From Sphingomicrobium sediminis (lineage in GTDB: Bacteria > Pseudomonadota > Alphaproteobacteria > Sphingomonadales > Sphingomonadaceae), in NCBI RefSeq assembly GCF_023805295.1, contig NZ_JAMSHT010000001.1, positions 2,181,001-2,245,000 on the forward strand: DNA of 64,000 nt, read 5' to 3'. The translations under genes and the position numbers were made by a program. The notes beneath the pieces were generated by a model. It did no database searches, was not told the DNA's origin, and saw only the letters and a list, made by a program, of their open reading frames with translations. Numbering within the stretch: the stretch's first letter is position 1; each line of letters starts with the position of its first letter. Of the stretch, positions 38,837-45,644 are shown piece after piece.

Positions 38837-39283
38837 TCAATGTCCTTCGTCGACGACGGCGTTGAATTTATCGATCCAGTCGCGCGGCTGCCGTCGCGGC
38901 CGCCCGTCCGGTGTCAGGAGCGCAGCGGTCACTTCGGCCGATGCCAGCAATTCATCGCCGCGCCTGACTGATTGATGAATGAAACAACTGGCAGCGCGCA
39001 CCTGTTTCACGCGACTTTCGACAATGAGCGCATCGTCGAGTTTGGCGGGGCGTTTCCAGTGAATGTCCATATGGGTGACGGCATAGGCGCCGAGGCCCTC
39101 ATCCTGCGCCGCGCGCTGGTCGATGCCGACGGCGCGGAGCATGTCCGAGCGGGCGCGTTCGAAATAGCGCAGATAATTGGCGTGATAGACGATCCCCGAC
39201 AAATCGGTGTCCTCGAAATAGACGCGCACGGGAAAGGAGTGGAGGCTGCCGTCGAAGCGGCCCTCTGGCGGGGTCAAGGTCAT
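38837..39283 (-). CDS. ybgC: YbgC-family acyl-CoA thioesterase
   Basis: A 148-residue hotdog-fold thioesterase. The active-site region VYFEDTDLSGIVYHANYLRYFERARSD (given in parts) has the conserved Asp and the HANYL loop. YbgC enzymes hydrolyse short- or long-chain acyl-CoA or acyl-ACP and are almost always found upstream of tolQ. The ATG at 39283 gives the normal length. The frame continues upstream for 36 codons, but without family similarity. It is followed by tolQ at one base. Confidence 0.92.
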   Translation of the reverse strand: MTLTPPEGRFDGSLHSFPVRVYFEDTDLSGIVYHANYLRYFERARSDMLRAVGIDQRAAQDEGLGAYAVTHMDIHWKRPAKLDDALIVESRVKQVRAASCFIHQSVRRGDELLASAEVTAALLTPDGRPRRQPRDWIDKFNAVVDEGH

Positions 39284-39353
39284 TACGGGCGTGAATAGCG
39301 CGGGAAATGCCCCTGCGCCAGCAGGGTTAACATGGGGGTCGCCAAAGCGACTC

Positions 39354-40481
39354 CTATTCGCGACCGACGGTGTCCGACATCGCCGCGACAAGGTTGATCA
39401 GGTCTTCCTGCGCAAAGGCGATGTCGTTGAGATGCTTGCCCCAGCCGGGTAGGAAGAAGCCGCCCATGCCGACTTCGCCGCCGATACGGCGCGAGCGCGT
39501 GTCGTCGGTGCCGCGTGGAATGCGGATGGCGAGATAGCCGGCGGGGCCGTCTTCGACGCATTGCGCCTCGACGAAATCGTCGGCCACCGCATAGGCGGTC
39601 GGCGGCGGACCGTCGGTGGTCCAGGTAATCGGACCGCCCTTCACCGGATAGGTCGATTTGACGAAATAGTAGCCGTCCAGCTTGGTCCAGCCGCCATTGG
39701 CGTCGGCGGCAGGCACGGTGCAGATGGGCCGCATGCCCGGCACCGGGCTGTAGCCGAACAACGCGCCGCGGGACGGGGGCTCGTTGGCGCCGAAACTCGA
39801 CCAGCTCATGACGCATTGCGTCTGCAGCGCATCGCGGCAGGCCGGCGTCTCGGCAAAGCTGCCGCCGACATCCTCGCCCTCGGGCACGAGGATGTTCCAG
39901 CCGGGCAGGATGGCGCGGAGCATGAGGTCGTGCGCGTCGCTGCCCTCGATTTCCTCGCGCACCAGCTGTTCGAGCATGATCGAACCCTGGCTGTGGCCGA
40001 TAAGGACGAAGGGTCGGCCGTCATTATGGTCGCGCAGGTAGGTGCGGAAGGCATCGCGCACGTCGCTATAGGCGATTTCGCCATAGCGGGTCATGTCGGC
40101 GCCGGTGGCCGCAAGCGCGATCGAGGCCATGGTCATCTGGCGATAGACGGGCGCGAAGGGACGGCAGACGCTGGAGAAACGGGCGAACTGCATCTGCGTG
40201 ATACGCAGTTCCTCGTTGCTGCCGACCTGCATGTCGCTGTTCATGCCGCTATCGCCGCTGATCGTCGGATAGACGTAGAAGCAGTCGACGCTGGCCTCTT
40301 CGTAAGGTGCGCTGATGGCGGCGCGGCCCCAGCCTTGCGGCGTCAGCTCGCTGCCAATGGGAATATCCGAACAGATATCATCGCCGCCGGGCAGGCAGAT
40401 CCAGTTTTGGGAAAGCGTGTAATCGGGCGCGTCGAGCGCGGGCTGCGCGGCGGCCAGCGAGGCCAGAGCGAGAAGCGACAT
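39354..40481 (-). CDS. DUF3089-family alpha/beta hydrolase, exported
   Basis: A 375-residue protein with a signal peptide (about 1-15, ending AAAQ). The central part has an alpha/beta-hydrolase nucleophile elbow in FVLIGHSQGSIMLEQLV (Ser in GHSQG) and the DUF3089 patterns VDCFYVYPTISGDSGMNSD and FARFSSVCRPFAPVYRQMT. The substrate is unknown; lipase or esterase activity is a fair guess. Its start overlaps the ruvB stop (TAATG), so it is translated from the ruv transcript. It is followed by ybgC after 70 bases. The cysteines spread along the chain could form disulfides, which fits export. Confidence 0.85.
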   Translation of the reverse strand: MSLLALASLAAAQPALDAPDYTLSQNWICLPGGDDICSDIPIGSELTPQGWGRAAISAPYEEASVDCFYVYPTISGDSGMNSDMQVGSNEELRITQMQFARFSSVCRPFAPVYRQMTMASIALAATGADMTRYGEIAYSDVRDAFRTYLRDHNDGRPFVLIGHSQGSIMLEQLVREEIEGSDAHDLMLRAILPGWNILVPEGEDVGGSFAETPACRDALQTQCVMSWSSFGANEPPSRGALFGYSPVPGMRPICTVPAADANGGWTKLDGYYFVKSTYPVKGGPITWTTDGPPPTAYAVADDFVEAQCVEDGPAGYLAIRIPRGTDDTRSRRIGGEVGMGGFFLPGWGKHLNDIAFAQEDLINLVAAMSDTVGRE

Positions 40482-41512
40482 TACTTTTCCTCGAATAATC
40501 CGTTTTGCGTGTCGGAGGGCGGCGTCAGGCCCAAATGGGTCCAGCCGCGTCCGTTCAACTGCCGCCCTCTTGCGGTACGCGCGATGAGGCCAAGCTGAAT
40601 GAGATAGGGCTCGATCACATCCTCGATCGTGTCGCGCGGTTCGCTAAGGCCTGCGGCGAGCGTTTCCACGCCCACCGGGCCGCCGCCATACAGATCGGCG
40701 ATCATGGTGAGGTAGCGGCGGTCCATCGCGTCGAGTCCGAGTGCATCGATCTCGAGCCGGGTAAGCGCGCGGTCGGCAGTGGCCGCGTCGATGCTGGCGG
40801 CATCCTCGGCCTGCGCAAAGTCGCGGACGCGGCGGAGCAGGCGGCCCGCAACACGCGGCGTGCCACGCGAGCGCTTGGCGATTTCGTGCGCGCCATCCTT
40901 AGCGAGCGGCGCGTCGAGCAGGCCCGCGGCGCGGGTGACGACCAGTTCCAATTCCTCCACCTCGTAGAAATTGAGGCGAACCGGAATGCCAAAGCGGTCG
41001 CGCAAAGGCGTGGCGAGCAGGCCCTGCCGCGTGGTTGCGCCGACCAAAGTGAAGGGCGGCAGGTCGATGCGGACCGAACGTGCGGACGGGCCTTCGCCCA
41101 CCATGATGTCCAGCGCGCGATCTTCCATCGCGGGATAGAGGATTTCCTCGACCGCCGGATTGAGACGGTGGATCTCGTCGATGAAGAGGACGTCGCCTTC
41201 CTCGAGATTGGTGAGCAAGGCGGCCAGATCGCCCGACTTGGCGATGACTGGGCCGGACGTGGCGCGGAAACCGACGCCGAGTTCGCGCGCGATGATTCCG
41301 GCCAATGTCGTCTTGCCCAGCCCCGGCGGGCCGAAGAAGAGCACATGGTCGAGCGCATCCCCGCGCTTCTTCGCCGCATCGATGAAGATGCGGAGGTTCT
41401 CGCGCGCGCCCTTCTGCCCGACAAATTCGTCGAGCGATTTGGGACGCAGCGCTGCGTCGGCATCTTCGGTGCGCCGCTCGGGCGTGGTCAGGCGATCGGG
41501 GTCAGTGGCCAT
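40481..41512 (-). CDS. ruvB: Holliday junction branch migration ATPase RuvB
   Basis: A 343-residue AAA+ ATPase that, as hexamers flanking RuvA, drives Holliday-junction branch migration. It shows Walker A ([15 protein letters not shown]), Walker B ([16 protein letters not shown]), the beta-hairpin/sensor segment [20 protein letters not shown] and the C-terminal winged helix ([18 protein letters not shown]). ATG 41512 gives the normal start ([19 protein letters not shown]). An upstream frame extension is not family-like. The 59-codon microprotein gene ends 11 bases inside it. A near-copy of its first 12 codons lies 267 bases upstream, in a chimeric frame. Confidence 0.97.
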
Positions 41513-41681
41513 AATTCGAACCGATTTCCGCTCCGATGCATTGCTCGGATTGCCCACTCCACGAGCCACCTCGATCCAAGCAGCGATCTTTCTTCATAAA
41601 TTCTGAATGCATCACAAACCAGTAACCCAACAGCCCCAAAAGTAAGAATGCAAAAAGCAGCATAGCAAGGACACGCCTCAC
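41502..41681 (-). CDS. 59-residue membrane microprotein between ruvA remnant and ruvB
   Basis: A GTG-started frame with one hydrophobic helix ([18 protein letters not shown], residues 7-24) and a short soluble tail with [19 protein letters not shown], where two cysteines bracket a Gly/Trp loop. Similar 'CLDxGG.W' tails occur in many small alphaproteobacterial proteins of unknown function. The GTG overlaps the stop of the chimeric frame as GTGA. The stop lies 11 bases inside ruvB, so all three are coupled. The DNA is visibly more AT-rich than ruvB. An internal ATG (codon 7) is an alternative start. No function is known. Confidence 0.68.
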
Positions 41682-41779
41682 TTCGCCGCCTTCTTCAATG
41701 CCACGCGGACCAGCGCATCGAGCCCCGCATCCTCACTGCTGCGCTCGGGCGTGGTCAGGCGGTCGGGGTCAGTGGCCAT
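41678..41779 (-). pseudogene. Chimeric ruvB'-'ruvA remnant (rearrangement scar)
   Basis: A 33-codon frame. Codons 1-12 ([12 protein letters not shown]) match the start of ruvB with one base change in 36. Codons 20-33 ([14 protein letters not shown]) match the last 14 residues of RuvA exactly. In that tail, counting the stop, 10 of 15 codons differ from the intact ruvA at 42735, all synonymously. The middle (RSSEDAG) is the junction. The result is what a tandem duplication of a ruvA-end to ruvB-start segment, or integration of a diverged copy, would leave behind. It is too short to make either protein. It may be translated, since its stop is coupled to the microprotein. Confidence 0.85.
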
Positions 41780-41829
41780 GGCGACAACCTAACGCGGCTT
41801 TCCCGCCACTGCGAGCGCGAAGTTGCCCG

Positions 41830-42738
41830 CTATTCCGACGGCAATGGCCGATAGGTGATGAAGTCGCCGGCCTCGAGGATTTCATCGCCATGATTGGCGA
41901 AGGTCAGCGGCAGGCTCGGGCAGGCTTGCGGTTCGCCGCAATGCTGGAGCTGGACGTGGAGGTGGGGCCCATAGCTGTCGCCGCTATTGCCGAGTTCGCC
42001 GACCTTATGGCCCTGCACGACCGTATCGCCGACCGCGACGACGACCGATCCGAACTTGAGGTGCATGAGCGAGGTGAACTCGCCGTTGCCATGGTCGATG
42101 ATGACATTGTTGCCGTGATAGGCCTGGCTGCCATCGGGAAAGGTGAAGGTGGCGCTGTCATAACCGCCCACCTGGTCGGGGACGCGATCCTCGATGAAGA
42201 CGACCTTGCCGTCGGCAGGCGCGATCACGTCCATCCCGAAGCCGGCGAGGTTCTCGTTCCGATATTCGGGGTCGGTCATGGGCCCATACGTGTCGGACAG
42301 GCCGAGAAAGTCATAGGCGAAGCGCGAGCGGATCCAGCCATGGCCGTTATTGTTGAAGACGCCGTTCGAAATGATCGCATTGCCGGCGAGCGGCAGGATG
42401 TAGCTGCCCTGCTGTTCGAAGGCGATCGGCTCATAGCGCACGCCGATGTCGCCGACACTGATCGTGAAGGACCTGACCTCCAGCGATTTGGGATAATGGG
42501 CGACGTAGGTGAAGCGCCCGTCCACGTTGCTGTCGAGCATCGATATGTCCGGCCATTCCTGGACGACTTTGGCGCCATTGGCGCCTTCGGCGATGATCTG
42601 GACCGGACCGCCGAGCTCGGCCGAATATTGGTGATCGACGACCCAGCTTTCATAGTCGCCGGGGCCCGGCATATCGATGCGATAAACGGGCTGGTCGCTG
42701 ACGGCGATGGAGCCGGCGAGGGCTAGGATGGAGATCAT
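41830..42738 (-). CDS. M23-family metallopeptidase-like protein, exported
   Basis: A 302-residue protein with a weak signal peptide (about 1-13, SIAVSDQ). A C-terminal LytM/M23 domain (about 150-285) contains [35 protein letters not shown] and [17 protein letters not shown]. The HxH metal pair (HLH) and the histidine in MHLK are present. The first metal His of the usual HxxxD motif is replaced by Gly, although related proteins also vary there. These enzymes cut peptide cross-links in the wall. It starts in an ATGA overlap with the ruvA stop and lies between ruvA and ruvB, an unusual place. It could be an inactive activator (EnvC/NlpD-like) or an active peptidase. Confidence 0.85.
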
Positions 42739-43334
42739 TTGGCGGCCTTTTTGAGCGCGACGCGCACGAGCGCGTCGAGTGACGCCCCGGACCCCAATTC
42801 CTCCTGCGCCGCGGCAACGGCCTTGCTGGCTTCGGCGGGTTTGAACCCCAGGTTGGCGAGCGCCGAAAGCGCATCTTTGGCGACGCTGCCCGCCGGAGCT
42901 ACGTTGGGCCCGGCTGCAGGGATGCCTTCGAAGTCGCCAAACTTGCCAGCAAGCTCGTTGCAGATGCGCTGCGCGAGCTTGGGACCGACGCCGTTGGCTC
43001 TGGCGATCATCGCCTTGTCACCGCTGGCGATCGCCGCGCCCAGTTCCTCGGGGCCGAGGACCGACATGATGGCCAGCGCGACGCGGCCGCCGACGCCCTG
43101 CACGCCGGTCAGCGCGGTGAAGCCGGCTTTCTCGGCTGCGCTCATGAAGCCGTAGAGCGTCATCGAATCCTCACGCACCTGCATCTCGGTCATCAGCATG
43201 ACGTGGCTGCCCACGGTTCCGATGGCATCCAAGGTGCGCGCCGAGACGTGGATGAGATAGCCGACGCCCGAAACGTCGAGGACGATGGTGTCGGAACCGA
43301 TTTCGGCAAGCTTGCCGGTGAGCCGTGCGATCAT
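42735..43334 (-). CDS. ruvA: Holliday junction branch migration protein RuvA
   Basis: A 199-residue protein that binds four-way junctions as a tetramer and loads RuvB. The start [15 protein letters not shown] and the patterns [55 protein letters not shown] and the C-terminal domain III ([20 protein letters not shown]) are all typical. ATG 43334 gives the normal length; an upstream extension is not conserved. It overlaps the M23 gene by four bases. Its last 14 residues are repeated in the chimeric remnant. It is divergent from the lipoprotein gene at 43439. Confidence 0.97.
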
Positions 43335-43438
43335 GCGACTTTTGTGGCGGGCATCGGGCCGTCTGTCGAGGGGGTGGTGACGCGGCAGGGGCATAGGGTG
43401 TAGCGGAGCGGCGACTATTCAACTTGGAGACCTTGATC

Positions 43439-44410
43439 ATGCGTACCCTGTTTCTCGCCCCGCTCATCATGCTGAGCGCGTGCAGCACGACCGCCGAGCC
43501 GCTGCGCTACGGCACCAGCGCCGACATGCTGGTGGTCGGCAACAAGAGCGAGGACACGGTGAGCTTTATCGATCTCGATACGGGCGCCGAGCTTGCGCGG
43601 CTGGCGACGGGCAGCAACCCCCATGAAATCGCCGTTTCGCCGGATGGGGAGACGGTCGCGGTTGTTCATTATGGCGGCAAGTCGGTCGAATTGTTCGATG
43701 CCGAGGATCCGGCCTCGATCCGCACCATCGATCTTGGCGACAATGAAGGGCCACATGGCATCGTCTGGGCCTCCAACGACCGGCTCATCATCACGACCGA
43801 GCGAAGCCAGAGCCTGACCATCGTCGACCTCGAGGATGACAGCGTGCGGGCCATCCCGACCGGCCAGCAGGTCAGCCACATGGTGGCGCTGACCCCCGAT
43901 GAGGAGACAGCCTTCGTCGCCAATATGGGGTCGGGCACGGTGAGCGTGATCGACCTCAAGACTGGCAGCAAGGTGCGCGATATCGCGGCGGGCGATACGC
44001 CCGAGGGCATCGCCGTATCGCCGACCGGGAAGGCGCTATGGGTGGCCGACCGCGACAATGCGACGTTGATCCAGTTCGAAATCCCGACCTATCGCGAAAT
44101 CCGCCGCTACGAGACGGGCAACTTCCCGATCCGCGTCGCGGTCAGTCCCGACGGCAAGCGGGTGGTGACCTCCAACTATGCCGATGGGAGCCTCACCGTC
44201 ATCGACACCGACAAGGCGCCGCAGACCATCGCCGTGTCGGGCACGCAGGAAGCCGGGCAGGTCACGATCCTGTTCGCCGAAGACGGCCGGCACCTATTCG
44301 TCGCCGAAACCGGCCGCGCGCAGGTGGCGCTGGTCGATCTCGATACGGGCGAGGTCGTGACGCGCTTCGATGCGGGTGCGGGGTCGGACGGGCTCGCGCT
44401 GGCCGACTAG
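43439..44410 (+). CDS. YncE-like beta-propeller lipoprotein
   Basis: A 323-residue lipoprotein with a lipobox (IMLSAC, Cys15) and a seven-bladed beta-propeller of YVTN-type repeats. Blade-like segments include VVGNKSEDTVSFIDLDTGAEL, FVANMGSGTVSVIDLKTGSKV, WVADRDNATLIQFEIPT, VTSNYADGSLTVIDTDKAP and FVAETGRAQVALVDLDTGEVV. YncE-like proteins bind DNA, quinohaem systems or surface partners in different species, so function is open. It lies on the plus strand between ruvA and ruvC, which are on the minus strand, and its end overlaps the ruvC stop. ATG 43439 behind GGAGACC is preferred over the upstream TTG. Confidence 0.83.
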   Translation: MRTLFLAPLIMLSACSTTAEPLRYGTSADMLVVGNKSEDTVSFIDLDTGAELARLATGSNPHEIAVSPDGETVAVVHYGGKSVELFDAEDPASIRTIDLGDNEGPHGIVWASNDRLIITTERSQSLTIVDLEDDSVRAIPTGQQVSHMVALTPDEETAFVANMGSGTVSVIDLKTGSKVRDIAAGDTPEGIAVSPTGKALWVADRDNATLIQFEIPTYREIRRYETGNFPIRVAVSPDGKRVVTSNYADGSLTVIDTDKAPQTIAVSGTQEAGQVTILFAEDGRHLFVAETGRAQVALVDLDTGEVVTRFDAGAGSDGLALAD

Positions 44411-44892
44411 AGCCCGCGCGCCCGGCTCGCGGCATGGTGGGCGTGGGTAATGGCGACGGCGAGGGCGTCGGCGGCATCGCTGCCGGCAATCTTGATGCCG
44501 GGCATCAGCACCTTGACCATGTCGTGAACCTGGCGCTTTTCGGCATTGCCGACGCCGACAACCGACTTCTTGACCAGCCGCGCGGCATATTCGCCAACCT
44601 CGATACCGCCCTGCGCGCAAACCGCCAGCAGCGCCCCGCGCGCCTGCGCGAGCTTGAGCGTCGATTGCGGGTTCTTGTTGACGAAAATCTCCTCCACCGC
44701 CGCGCAGTCGGGATCATGATCCTTGATCAGCGCGTCAATCTGCAGCGCAAGGTGCGAAAGGCGCTGCGGCAGGGCCTCCTTCGCATCGGTTTTCACCTGC
44801 CCGTTGGCAAGGTGGCGCAGGCGATTGCCGTCGGCCTCGACCAGGCCCCAGCCAGTGGTGCCGAGGCCCGGGTCGAGTCCGAGGATTTTCAT
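44407..44892 (-). CDS. ruvC: Crossover junction endodeoxyribonuclease RuvC
   Basis: A 161-residue Holliday-junction resolvase. The four catalytic acids are in place: Asp7 (LGLDPGLGTTGWG), Glu67 (VEEIFVNKN), Asp139 and Asp142 (GSDAADALAVAITH). It cuts junctions symmetrically in concert with RuvAB. The ATG 44892 shares a base with the yebC stop (TAATG), so yebC-ruvC is one unit. An inserted, oppositely oriented lipoprotein gene now separates it from ruvA, whereas ruvCAB is contiguous in many relatives. Confidence 0.96.
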   Translation of the reverse strand: MKILGLDPGLGTTGWGLVEADGNRLRHLANGQVKTDAKEALPQRLSHLALQIDALIKDHDPDCAAVEEIFVNKNPQSTLKLAQARGALLAVCAQGGIEVGEYAARLVKKSVVGVGNAEKRQVHDMVKVLMPGIKIAGSDAADALAVAITHAHHAASRARGL

Positions 44893-45644
44893 TATTCGGC
44901 CTGGCCGAGCCGCTCCAGTTCGGCGTCCGAGAAGGTGTAGTTGCCCCACACCGTCTGGACGTCGTCATCATCCTCGAGCAGTTCGATCAGCTTGACCAGC
45001 TGGTCGGCATCCTTGCCCTCGACTTCGGTTTCCATGTGCGGGCGCCAGGCGAGCTTCGCCGTTTCGGGTTCGCCAAGCACCTTTTCGAGCGCCGAGGAGA
45101 CTTCGTGGAGCTGGTCGGCCTCGGTCCAGATGGTGTGCGTTTCCTCGTCCGACTGGATGTCGTCCGCGCCCGCTTCCATCGCAGCTTCGAGAACCTTTTC
45201 CTCGCTCAGGCCCTCGGCCTTGTATTCGATCAGGCCGAGACGGTCGAAGCTGTGCGCGACCGCGCCGGTCGAACCAAGGTTGCCGCCATTTTTGGACAGG
45301 ATGGTGCGCACGCTCGTGGCGGTGCGGTTGCGATTGTCGCTGAGCGTCTCGATGATCAGCGCGATGCCGTTCGGGCCATAGCCTTCGTAGCGGATTTCTT
45401 CATAATCATCGCCTTCGGACGCCGAGGCCTTGTCGATCGCCTTCTTGATATTGTCCTTGGGCATCGACTGCTTGAGCGCGGTGTTGACCGCGAGGCGGAG
45501 GCGCGGGTTCATGTCCGGGTCGGGTAGACCCATCTTGGCCGCGACGGTGATTTCGCGGCTCAGCTTGGAAAAGAGCGCCGAGCGCTTCTTGTCCTGCGCG
45601 CCCTTGCGATGCTTGATATTGGCGAATTTACTATGGCCTGCCAT
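44892..45644 (-). CDS. yebC: YebC/PmpR-family protein
   Basis: A 250-residue conserved protein. The opening [20 protein letters not shown] and later [42 protein letters not shown] (in parts) and [18 protein letters not shown] are classic. Family members were named transcriptional regulators, and one branch relieves ribosome stalling at proline runs; which applies here cannot be read. It is the usual upstream neighbour of ruvC. Length is normal. Confidence 0.96.

What the first reader, a model, noticed from the sequence alone, without database searches (positions are those of the whole stretch)
41678..41779. Chimeric ruvB'-'ruvA frame: a scar of ruvAB duplication or integration of a diverged copy
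The 33-codon frame begins with the first 12 codons of ruvB (one base change in 36) and ends with the last 14 residues of RuvA. In that tail 10 of 15 codons (including the stop) differ from the intact ruvA, all synonymously, while the amino acids are identical. The head is nearly identical to ruvB; the tail is an old, diverged ruvA tail. A simple recent duplication would leave both parts equally similar. This suggests recombination between ruvAB segments of two lineages, with the new M23 gene brought in between ruvA and this scar. The scar is in frame and coupled to the next gene.
Basis: partly seen in the sequence, partly recalled or inferred. Interest (0 to 1): 0.75.

Follow-up and report, generated by a model that had tools for sequence, protein, structure and literature searches.

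The report
Recombination scar inside a bacterial repair operon
A short fused remnant of two DNA-repair genes marks the seam where two different versions of the ruvA–ruvB region were joined, at a spot where this group of bacteria often carries different unrelated genes; it is a clear fossil of gene exchange rather than a new kind of gene.

Summary
Window 41779..41678 (minus strand) is a 33-codon frame that starts as ruvB and ends as ruvA. It is RuvB-like to residue 18 and RuvA-like from residue 17/18; the join lies in two Asp-Ala codons that both proteins share in register. Nothing comparable was seen in the other 89 ruvA–ruvB spacers scanned.

The recombination reading is mostly supported. Both parental arrangements exist, outside the genus. 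One other genome has ruvA–M23–ruvB (M23 65% identical). Six have the small membrane gene directly before ruvB, and in two of these its GTG overlaps the ruvA stop just as it overlaps the chimera's stop here.

More generally, ruvA–ruvB is a cargo slot. In 61 measurable genomes of the genus the gap runs from -4 to 4699 bp, while nearby tol junctions are fixed.

Best mechanism: import of a diverged ruvAB segment, homologous at one end, illegitimately joined at the other. Which copy is resident cannot be told.

The parts
42735..43334 (-). ruvA, intact; its TGA (AAATGA) contains the ATG of the M23 gene
   Evidence: Pfam RuvA_N, HHH_5 and RuvA_C; only RuvA match in the own genome
41830..42738 (-). 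M23 peptidase gene, 302 aa, cargo 1
   Evidence: PF01551 E 3.7e-16; nearest full-length relative in 397 family genomes, 65% identical, also lies between ruvA and ruvB
41780..41829 (-). Leader before the chimeric frame, resembling the leader of ruvB in a congener
   Evidence: The 55 nt before the chimera's ATG score 36 against the 60 nt upstream of ruvB in G016; maximum of 600 shuffled comparisons 26
41678..41779 (-). The chimeric 33-codon frame (the scar)
41726..41779 (-). RuvB-derived head, codons 1-18
   Evidence: residue agreement with 53 RuvB; 7 of 54 nt differ from the intact ruvB
41726..41731 (-). Join: Asp-Ala codons GAT GCG shared in register by RuvB and RuvA
   Evidence: D17 and A18 agree with both families
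41678..41731 (-). RuvA-derived tail, codons 17 to stop
   Evidence: 18-residue profile match, score 39.2; nearest ruvA tail G001, 5 of 45 nt; own ruvA 11 of 45
41502..41681 (-). 59-aa single-helix membrane protein gene with a CLDxGGxW motif, cargo 2; GTG inside the chimera's stop, own stop inside the ruvB start
   Evidence: homologues directly before ruvB in G282, G254, G155, G162, G334 and G435. G+C 0.494. The single helix and the motif are my reading of the sequence
40481..41512 (-). ruvB, intact; its first 36 nt (41477-41512) form a direct repeat with 41744-41779
   Evidence: Pfam RuvB_N, AAA_lid_4, RuvB_C; only RuvB match in the own genome

Best explanation
The frame is a recombination scar. 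One lineage had ruvA–M23–ruvB, another had ruvA–59aa–ruvB. DNA from one entered the other, was exchanged by ordinary homologous recombination at one end (in or beyond ruvA, or in ruvB), and at the other end was joined illegitimately where codon 17-18 of ruvB met the matching Asp-Ala codons near the end of ruvA. The product keeps a whole ruvA, the M23 gene, the old ruvA tail still coupled to the 59-aa gene, and a whole ruvB, so no repair gene was lost. The frame fused in phase, so translation that starts at the copied ruvB start would end on the GTG of the 59-aa gene. Shown: chimeric structure, position of the join, existence of both parental arrangements, uniqueness in the sample, cargo turnover at this site. 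Inferred: homology-facilitated illegitimate recombination as the route, the microhomology, and the coupling.
For: Structure and join. Parental ruvA–M23–ruvB in G438. Parental ruvA–small gene–ruvB with identical GTG/stop overlap in G282 and G254; small gene directly before ruvB in four more. Two tails in one genome differ by 11/45 nt (24%), like whole ruvA between species of this clade (0.11-0.24). Leader of the chimera matches a congener's ruvB leader. The site has frequent cargo change. A 3-10 bp microhomology at most such junctions is reported for homology-facilitated illegitimate recombination (PMC3240628, introduction), and the same mechanism was proposed for stacked immunity genes in Vibrio cholerae (PMC5361080, passages).
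Against: The true parents are not in hand: no congener has either cargo, and G438, G282 and G254 are other genera. The microhomology is inferred from shared codons, not from parental DNA. Trees of the short pieces do not reject grouping each with the resident copy (AU p 0.13 and 0.247; the head tree also holds one misplaced row, G010). No left crossover point could be located: W is roughly equally far from its clade in ruvC, ruvA and ruvB, with only a slight lean of ruvA to G005. In E. coli conjugation, 56 of 60 clones with this kind of substrate were single-crossover products and 4 were illegitimate joins, 3 of those 4 without homology (PMC3240628, results section), so the rival route is not rare.
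Confidence: 0.72

Rival explanations
1. Merodiploid then deletion. A single crossover or a tandem duplication first gave ruvA–M23–ruvB–ruvA'–59aa–ruvB; a later deletion between ruvB codon 17 and the end of ruvA' left the chimera.
For: Gives exactly the same end product. Single-crossover products outnumbered illegitimate joins 56 to 4 in one E. coli experiment (PMC3240628).
Against: Needs an extra step and an intermediate that none of the 99 measurable spacers shows. The two cargo genes differ, so a plain within-genome duplication is excluded; one copy must be foreign.
Confidence: 0.2
2. A real small gene or regulatory peptide: the frame is selected, either to feed ribosomes to the 59-aa gene or as a peptide carrying the RuvA C-terminal helix.
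For: In frame, with a ruvB start and a stop overlapping GTG; identical RuvA residues despite 10 synonymous changes.
Against: Not found in the other 89 spacers scanned. The unchanged residues are explained by selection on ruvA before the fusion. Fusion in phase has a one in three chance.
Confidence: 0.05
3. Assembly artefact joining two strains.
For: The two copies are diverged like two species; only one genome shows the frame.
Against: The genome has 4 contigs, 99.99% completeness and 0.07% contamination. The join is at six shared bases, much shorter than the exact overlaps on which assemblers join (general knowledge). Reads were not available.
Confidence: 0.03

Closest known systems
Homology-facilitated illegitimate recombination (seen: PMC3240628 abstract, introduction and one results section)
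   Same: One homologous end, one illegitimate join, usually at 3-10 bp microhomology; foreign DNA trapped next to a homologous anchor
   Different: Natural case seen only as a product; anchor end not located; no deletion of resident genes, whereas about 1 kb deletions are typical in the experiments cited there
Stacked orphan immunity genes of Vibrio cholerae type VI clusters (seen: passages of PMC5361080)
   Same: New cargo enters beside a conserved anchor gene and older cargo is pushed downstream and kept
   Different: Here the anchor is a DNA-repair operon, the cargo is unrelated to it, and a piece of the anchor gene was left behind at the seam
Hotspots of gene turnover flanked by core genes, without mobile elements (seen: abstract and passages of PMC5635113)
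   Same: Variable genes between two conserved genes, no integrase among the cargo examined, homologous recombination at flanks proposed there
   Different: The slot lies inside an operon, and most measurable spacers use a start codon embedded in the upstream gene's stop; comparison here is between species, not within one

Membership tests
Homology-facilitated illegitimate recombination product | One end formed by homologous recombination | tested here: inconclusive
   Distances along ruvC, ruvA and ruvB show no clear crossover
Homology-facilitated illegitimate recombination product | Other end joins non-homologous DNA, mostly at 3-10 bp microhomology | tested here: inconclusive
Homology-facilitated illegitimate recombination product | RecA dependence | not testable with these tools
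   needs experiment
Core-gene-flanked hotspot of gene turnover | Conserved flanking genes with variable content between them | tested here: met
   61 genus spacers, -4 to 4699 bp, 58 of at least 150 bp; 13 combinations of six cargo families plus 9 spacers with other content; tol junctions 0 of 80 at 200 bp or more
Core-gene-flanked hotspot of gene turnover | Excess over the rest of the genome | tested here: inconclusive
   Only eight neighbouring junctions in 21 genomes compared; ruvC–ruvA (11 of 19) and ruvB–ybgC (21 of 21) also hold extra DNA of 200 bp or more
Conserved small gene | Frame kept in relatives | tested here: not met
   No match in the other 89 spacers scanned

The most novel reading that the evidence does not exclude
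ruvA ends mostly in Lys-TGA (AARTGA), so its stop carries a ready start codon (ATG or GTG). This makes the ruvA end a built-in landing site: coding DNA joined behind it is translated at once by coupling, and cargo accumulates between ruvA and ruvB by recombination anchored on ruvA and ruvB themselves, stacking new genes in front of old ones. The scar would be a rare inexact product of this ordinary process.
Probability: 0.3. Interest if true: 0.6.

Novelty: new member of a known kind. Interest (0 to 1): 0.42.

Why it matters
Seams left by gene import are usually erased. Here one is preserved with both parental arrangements still visible in other genera, so the route by which unrelated genes enter an operon can be read from sequence. 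The surroundings show a DNA-repair operon whose two subunits, ruvA and ruvB, are separated by changing cargo in nearly all measurable genomes of a genus, with the ruvA stop codon supplying the cargo's start. That makes ruv-anchored gene exchange directly testable by transformation in a harmless bacterium.

Tried and rejected
Age contrast of head and tail: rejected. Trees of tails (51 nt) and heads (54 nt): unresolved; in the head tree G010 was misplaced by an alignment offset. Promoter in the leader (GYTAGG before start codons): 6 hits at -26..-12 against 0.6 expected in 519 called genes, but the control CYTAGG gave 9 against 0.6, so the motif is not specific; dropped. Plasmid search with the frame: 6 records, best E 6e-3, none covering 80%. 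Rfam over 39000-45000: no match. Named-genome scan with the 59-aa protein: no relative confirmed. Other ruvA-tail copies in the own genome: one exact 21-nt match, the scar itself, and two with 3 mismatches elsewhere, against 1 for the backward control. Paper searches for an insertion site between ruvA and ruvB gave listings only, nothing on gene insertion there in sphingomonads; and one search returned no paper; one listed Borrelia paper was checked and its hit is a reference title.

Early errors mended: and mis-set some ruvA ends and ruvC starts (wrong gaps for G028 and G025, for example); one search replaces them. A hand-typed family list is replaced. Gene calls in spacers are mechanical and missed some GFA genes; maps families directly.

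Full report
What is there. On the minus strand the order is yebC, ruvC, (a plus-strand beta-propeller gene), ruvA, M23 peptidase gene, the 33-codon frame, a 59-codon frame, ruvB, a DUF3089 gene, ybgC and the tol genes. The own genome has one RuvA and one RuvB match. ruvA ends AAATGA, and the ATG in it starts the M23 gene; the chimeric frame ends AAGTGA, and the GTG in it starts the 59-codon frame, whose own stop (41502) lies 11 nt inside ruvB.

The observation. The first 36 nt of the frame differ from ruvB by one base; the last 14 residues equal RuvA with 10 of 15 codons changed, 11 of 45 nt. Residue by residue, the frame agrees with the RuvB of its genus up to A18 and with RuvA from D17/A18 on (53 RuvB and 61 RuvA, the window's own included). 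So the head is 18 codons, not 12, and the join lies in GAT GCG. Profile scores of 39.2 (tail) and 28.3 (head) stand against null maxima of 14.0 and 12.8 from 540 reversed frames. Among the 90 spacers of at least 60 bp (61 genus and 38 other-genus loci were measurable; 90 were long enough), the next best scores are 13.5 and 14.1.

Age of the two parts. Taken to codon 18 the head differs from the resident ruvB by 7 of 54 nt; the resident ruvB differs from the four nearest species by 6, 7, 8 and 10. The tail differs from the resident ruvA by 11 of 45 nt (0.24), and whole ruvA genes of the five-species clade differ by 0.11-0.24. Both parts are therefore about as diverged as two species of this clade. 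The tail is nearest to G001 (5 of 45). Trees of the short pieces have no starred branch, and grouping each piece with the resident copy is not rejected (AU p 0.13 for the tail, 0.247 for the head).

Parents. The M23 protein has one full-length relative in 397 genomes of the family, 65% identical, in G438, and it lies between ruvA and ruvB there (gap 1025 bp). In 70 congeners the best M23 match is 40% over part of the protein. In a database of 5.8 billion proteins only six others match it over at least 97% of its length (46-73%). For the 59-aa protein, 32 other genomes of 397 match at E 0.01 or better. In six of these the gene lies directly before ruvB: G282, G254, G155, G162, G334 and G435, six genera by their group codes. 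In G282 and G254 it also starts at the GTG in the ruvA stop, exactly as it does at the end of the chimera; in the other four ruvA lies about 0.56 to 0.9 kb upstream of it. Of the other 26 hits, 23 were fetched and have no ruvA and ruvB nearby (one, G289, has ruvC near), and three (G195, G205, G211) lie far from ruvB by the coordinates. No convincing match to the small gene was found in the 70 congeners (three weak ones, E 0.04-0.09).

The leader. The 55 nt before the chimera's ATG resemble the 60 nt before ruvB of the congener G016 (score 36; 600 shuffled comparisons reach 26 at most). The copied piece is thus a ruvB start with part of its upstream sequence. A promoter motif there could not be supported.

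The slot. RuvB was found at E 1e-60 or better in 68 of 71 genomes of the genus; 66 loci were taken, own included, and in 61 both genes lie in the stretch. In five (G006, G018, G050, G051, G058) ruvA was not in the stretch, twice because the contig is short. Gaps run from -4 to 4699 bp; 58 of 61 are at least 150 bp. In 38 measurable loci from other genera (43 taken; three of them chosen because of M23 or small-gene hits), 26 have gaps of at least 150 bp. In 21 genomes with 20-kb stretches, ruvA–ruvB holds 200 bp or more in 18 of 19, ruvC–ruvA in 11 of 19, ruvB–ybgC in 21 of 21, yebC–ruvC in 2 of 19, and the four junctions from ybgC to tolB in 0 of 80. So variability is not confined to ruvA–ruvB, but it is greatest there in range.

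Cargo. Six recurrent families were mapped in the 61 spacers: GFA 32, M19 dipeptidase 23, DUF1622 12, YkuD 5, ParA-like 4, a 147-aa membrane protein 4, in 13 combinations, with 9 further spacers of at least 150 bp holding none of these. Stacks such as ParA–GFA–M19 and YkuD–GFA–M19 occur. On a ruvA tree of 60 genomes DUF1622 changes as often as with shuffled labels (11 against 11.2; 119 of 200 shuffles no more), GFA somewhat less (16 against 20.0; 10 of 200), while M19 (10 against 18.5), YkuD and the 147-aa gene follow the tree (0 of 200 each). That tree is of ruvA itself and may carry the same recombination. No integrase or transposase family appeared among the 20 cargo proteins scanned with Pfam.

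Start codon in the stop. In 46 of 61 genomes the ruvA stop contains a start codon at -4; of the 44 of these with a gap of at least 150 bp, 36 have a frame of at least 80 aa from it (36 of all 58 such spacers). Shuffled spacers give 15%. The shuffle keeps base composition only.

How it arose. The simplest account is one import between two lineages, homologous at one end and illegitimate at the other, at a short shared word. This is the pattern called homology-facilitated illegitimate recombination (PMC3240628: abstract, introduction and one results section read) and proposed for stacked immunity genes in Vibrio cholerae (PMC5361080: passages). Core-gene-flanked hotspots without mobile elements are described in PMC5635113 (abstract and passages). 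A two-step route through a merodiploid gives the same product and is kept as a rival. Direction is open: the 59-aa gene has G+C 0.494 and GC3 0.533 against 0.642 for the window and about 0.8 GC3 for ruvA and ruvB, which would make it the odd piece, but its homologues' spacers in G282 and G254 have G+C 0.66, so composition does not decide.

Organism. This is by matching lengths, not by a name for the window itself.

Verdict. A real and well-preserved scar, a new example of a known kind of event, at a site of marked cargo turnover that the searches made here did not find described.

Noticed in passing
window 43424-44410 (+): A beta-propeller gene lies between ruvC and ruvA on the other strand; in 21 genomes the ruvC–ruvA gap is either near zero or about 1 kb or more.
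   Followed up: partly
window 39354-40481 (-): A DUF3089 gene between ruvB and ybgC was found in all 21 genomes with 20-kb stretches.
   Followed up: no
window 41516-41677: The 59-aa gene is AT-rich (G+C 0.494) in a 0.642 window, unlike the spacers with its homologues in G282 and G254.
   Followed up: partly
L102 (G009) ruvA–ruvB spacer: Two GFA genes in tandem behind a ParA-like gene.
   Followed up: no
L118 (G044) and L106 (G026) spacers: Remnants of the M19 gene: a C-terminal piece with a stop in G044, a second C-terminal piece beside a whole gene in G026; possible further scars of cargo loss.
   Followed up: no
L124 (G013): RuvB matches in two adjoining pieces and M19 in three, suggesting frameshifts or sequencing errors.
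   Followed up: no
window 41744-41779 and 41477-41512: The two ruvB starts form a 36-bp direct repeat with one mismatch, 267 bp apart; recombination between them would remove the old ruvA tail and the 59-aa gene.
   Followed up: no
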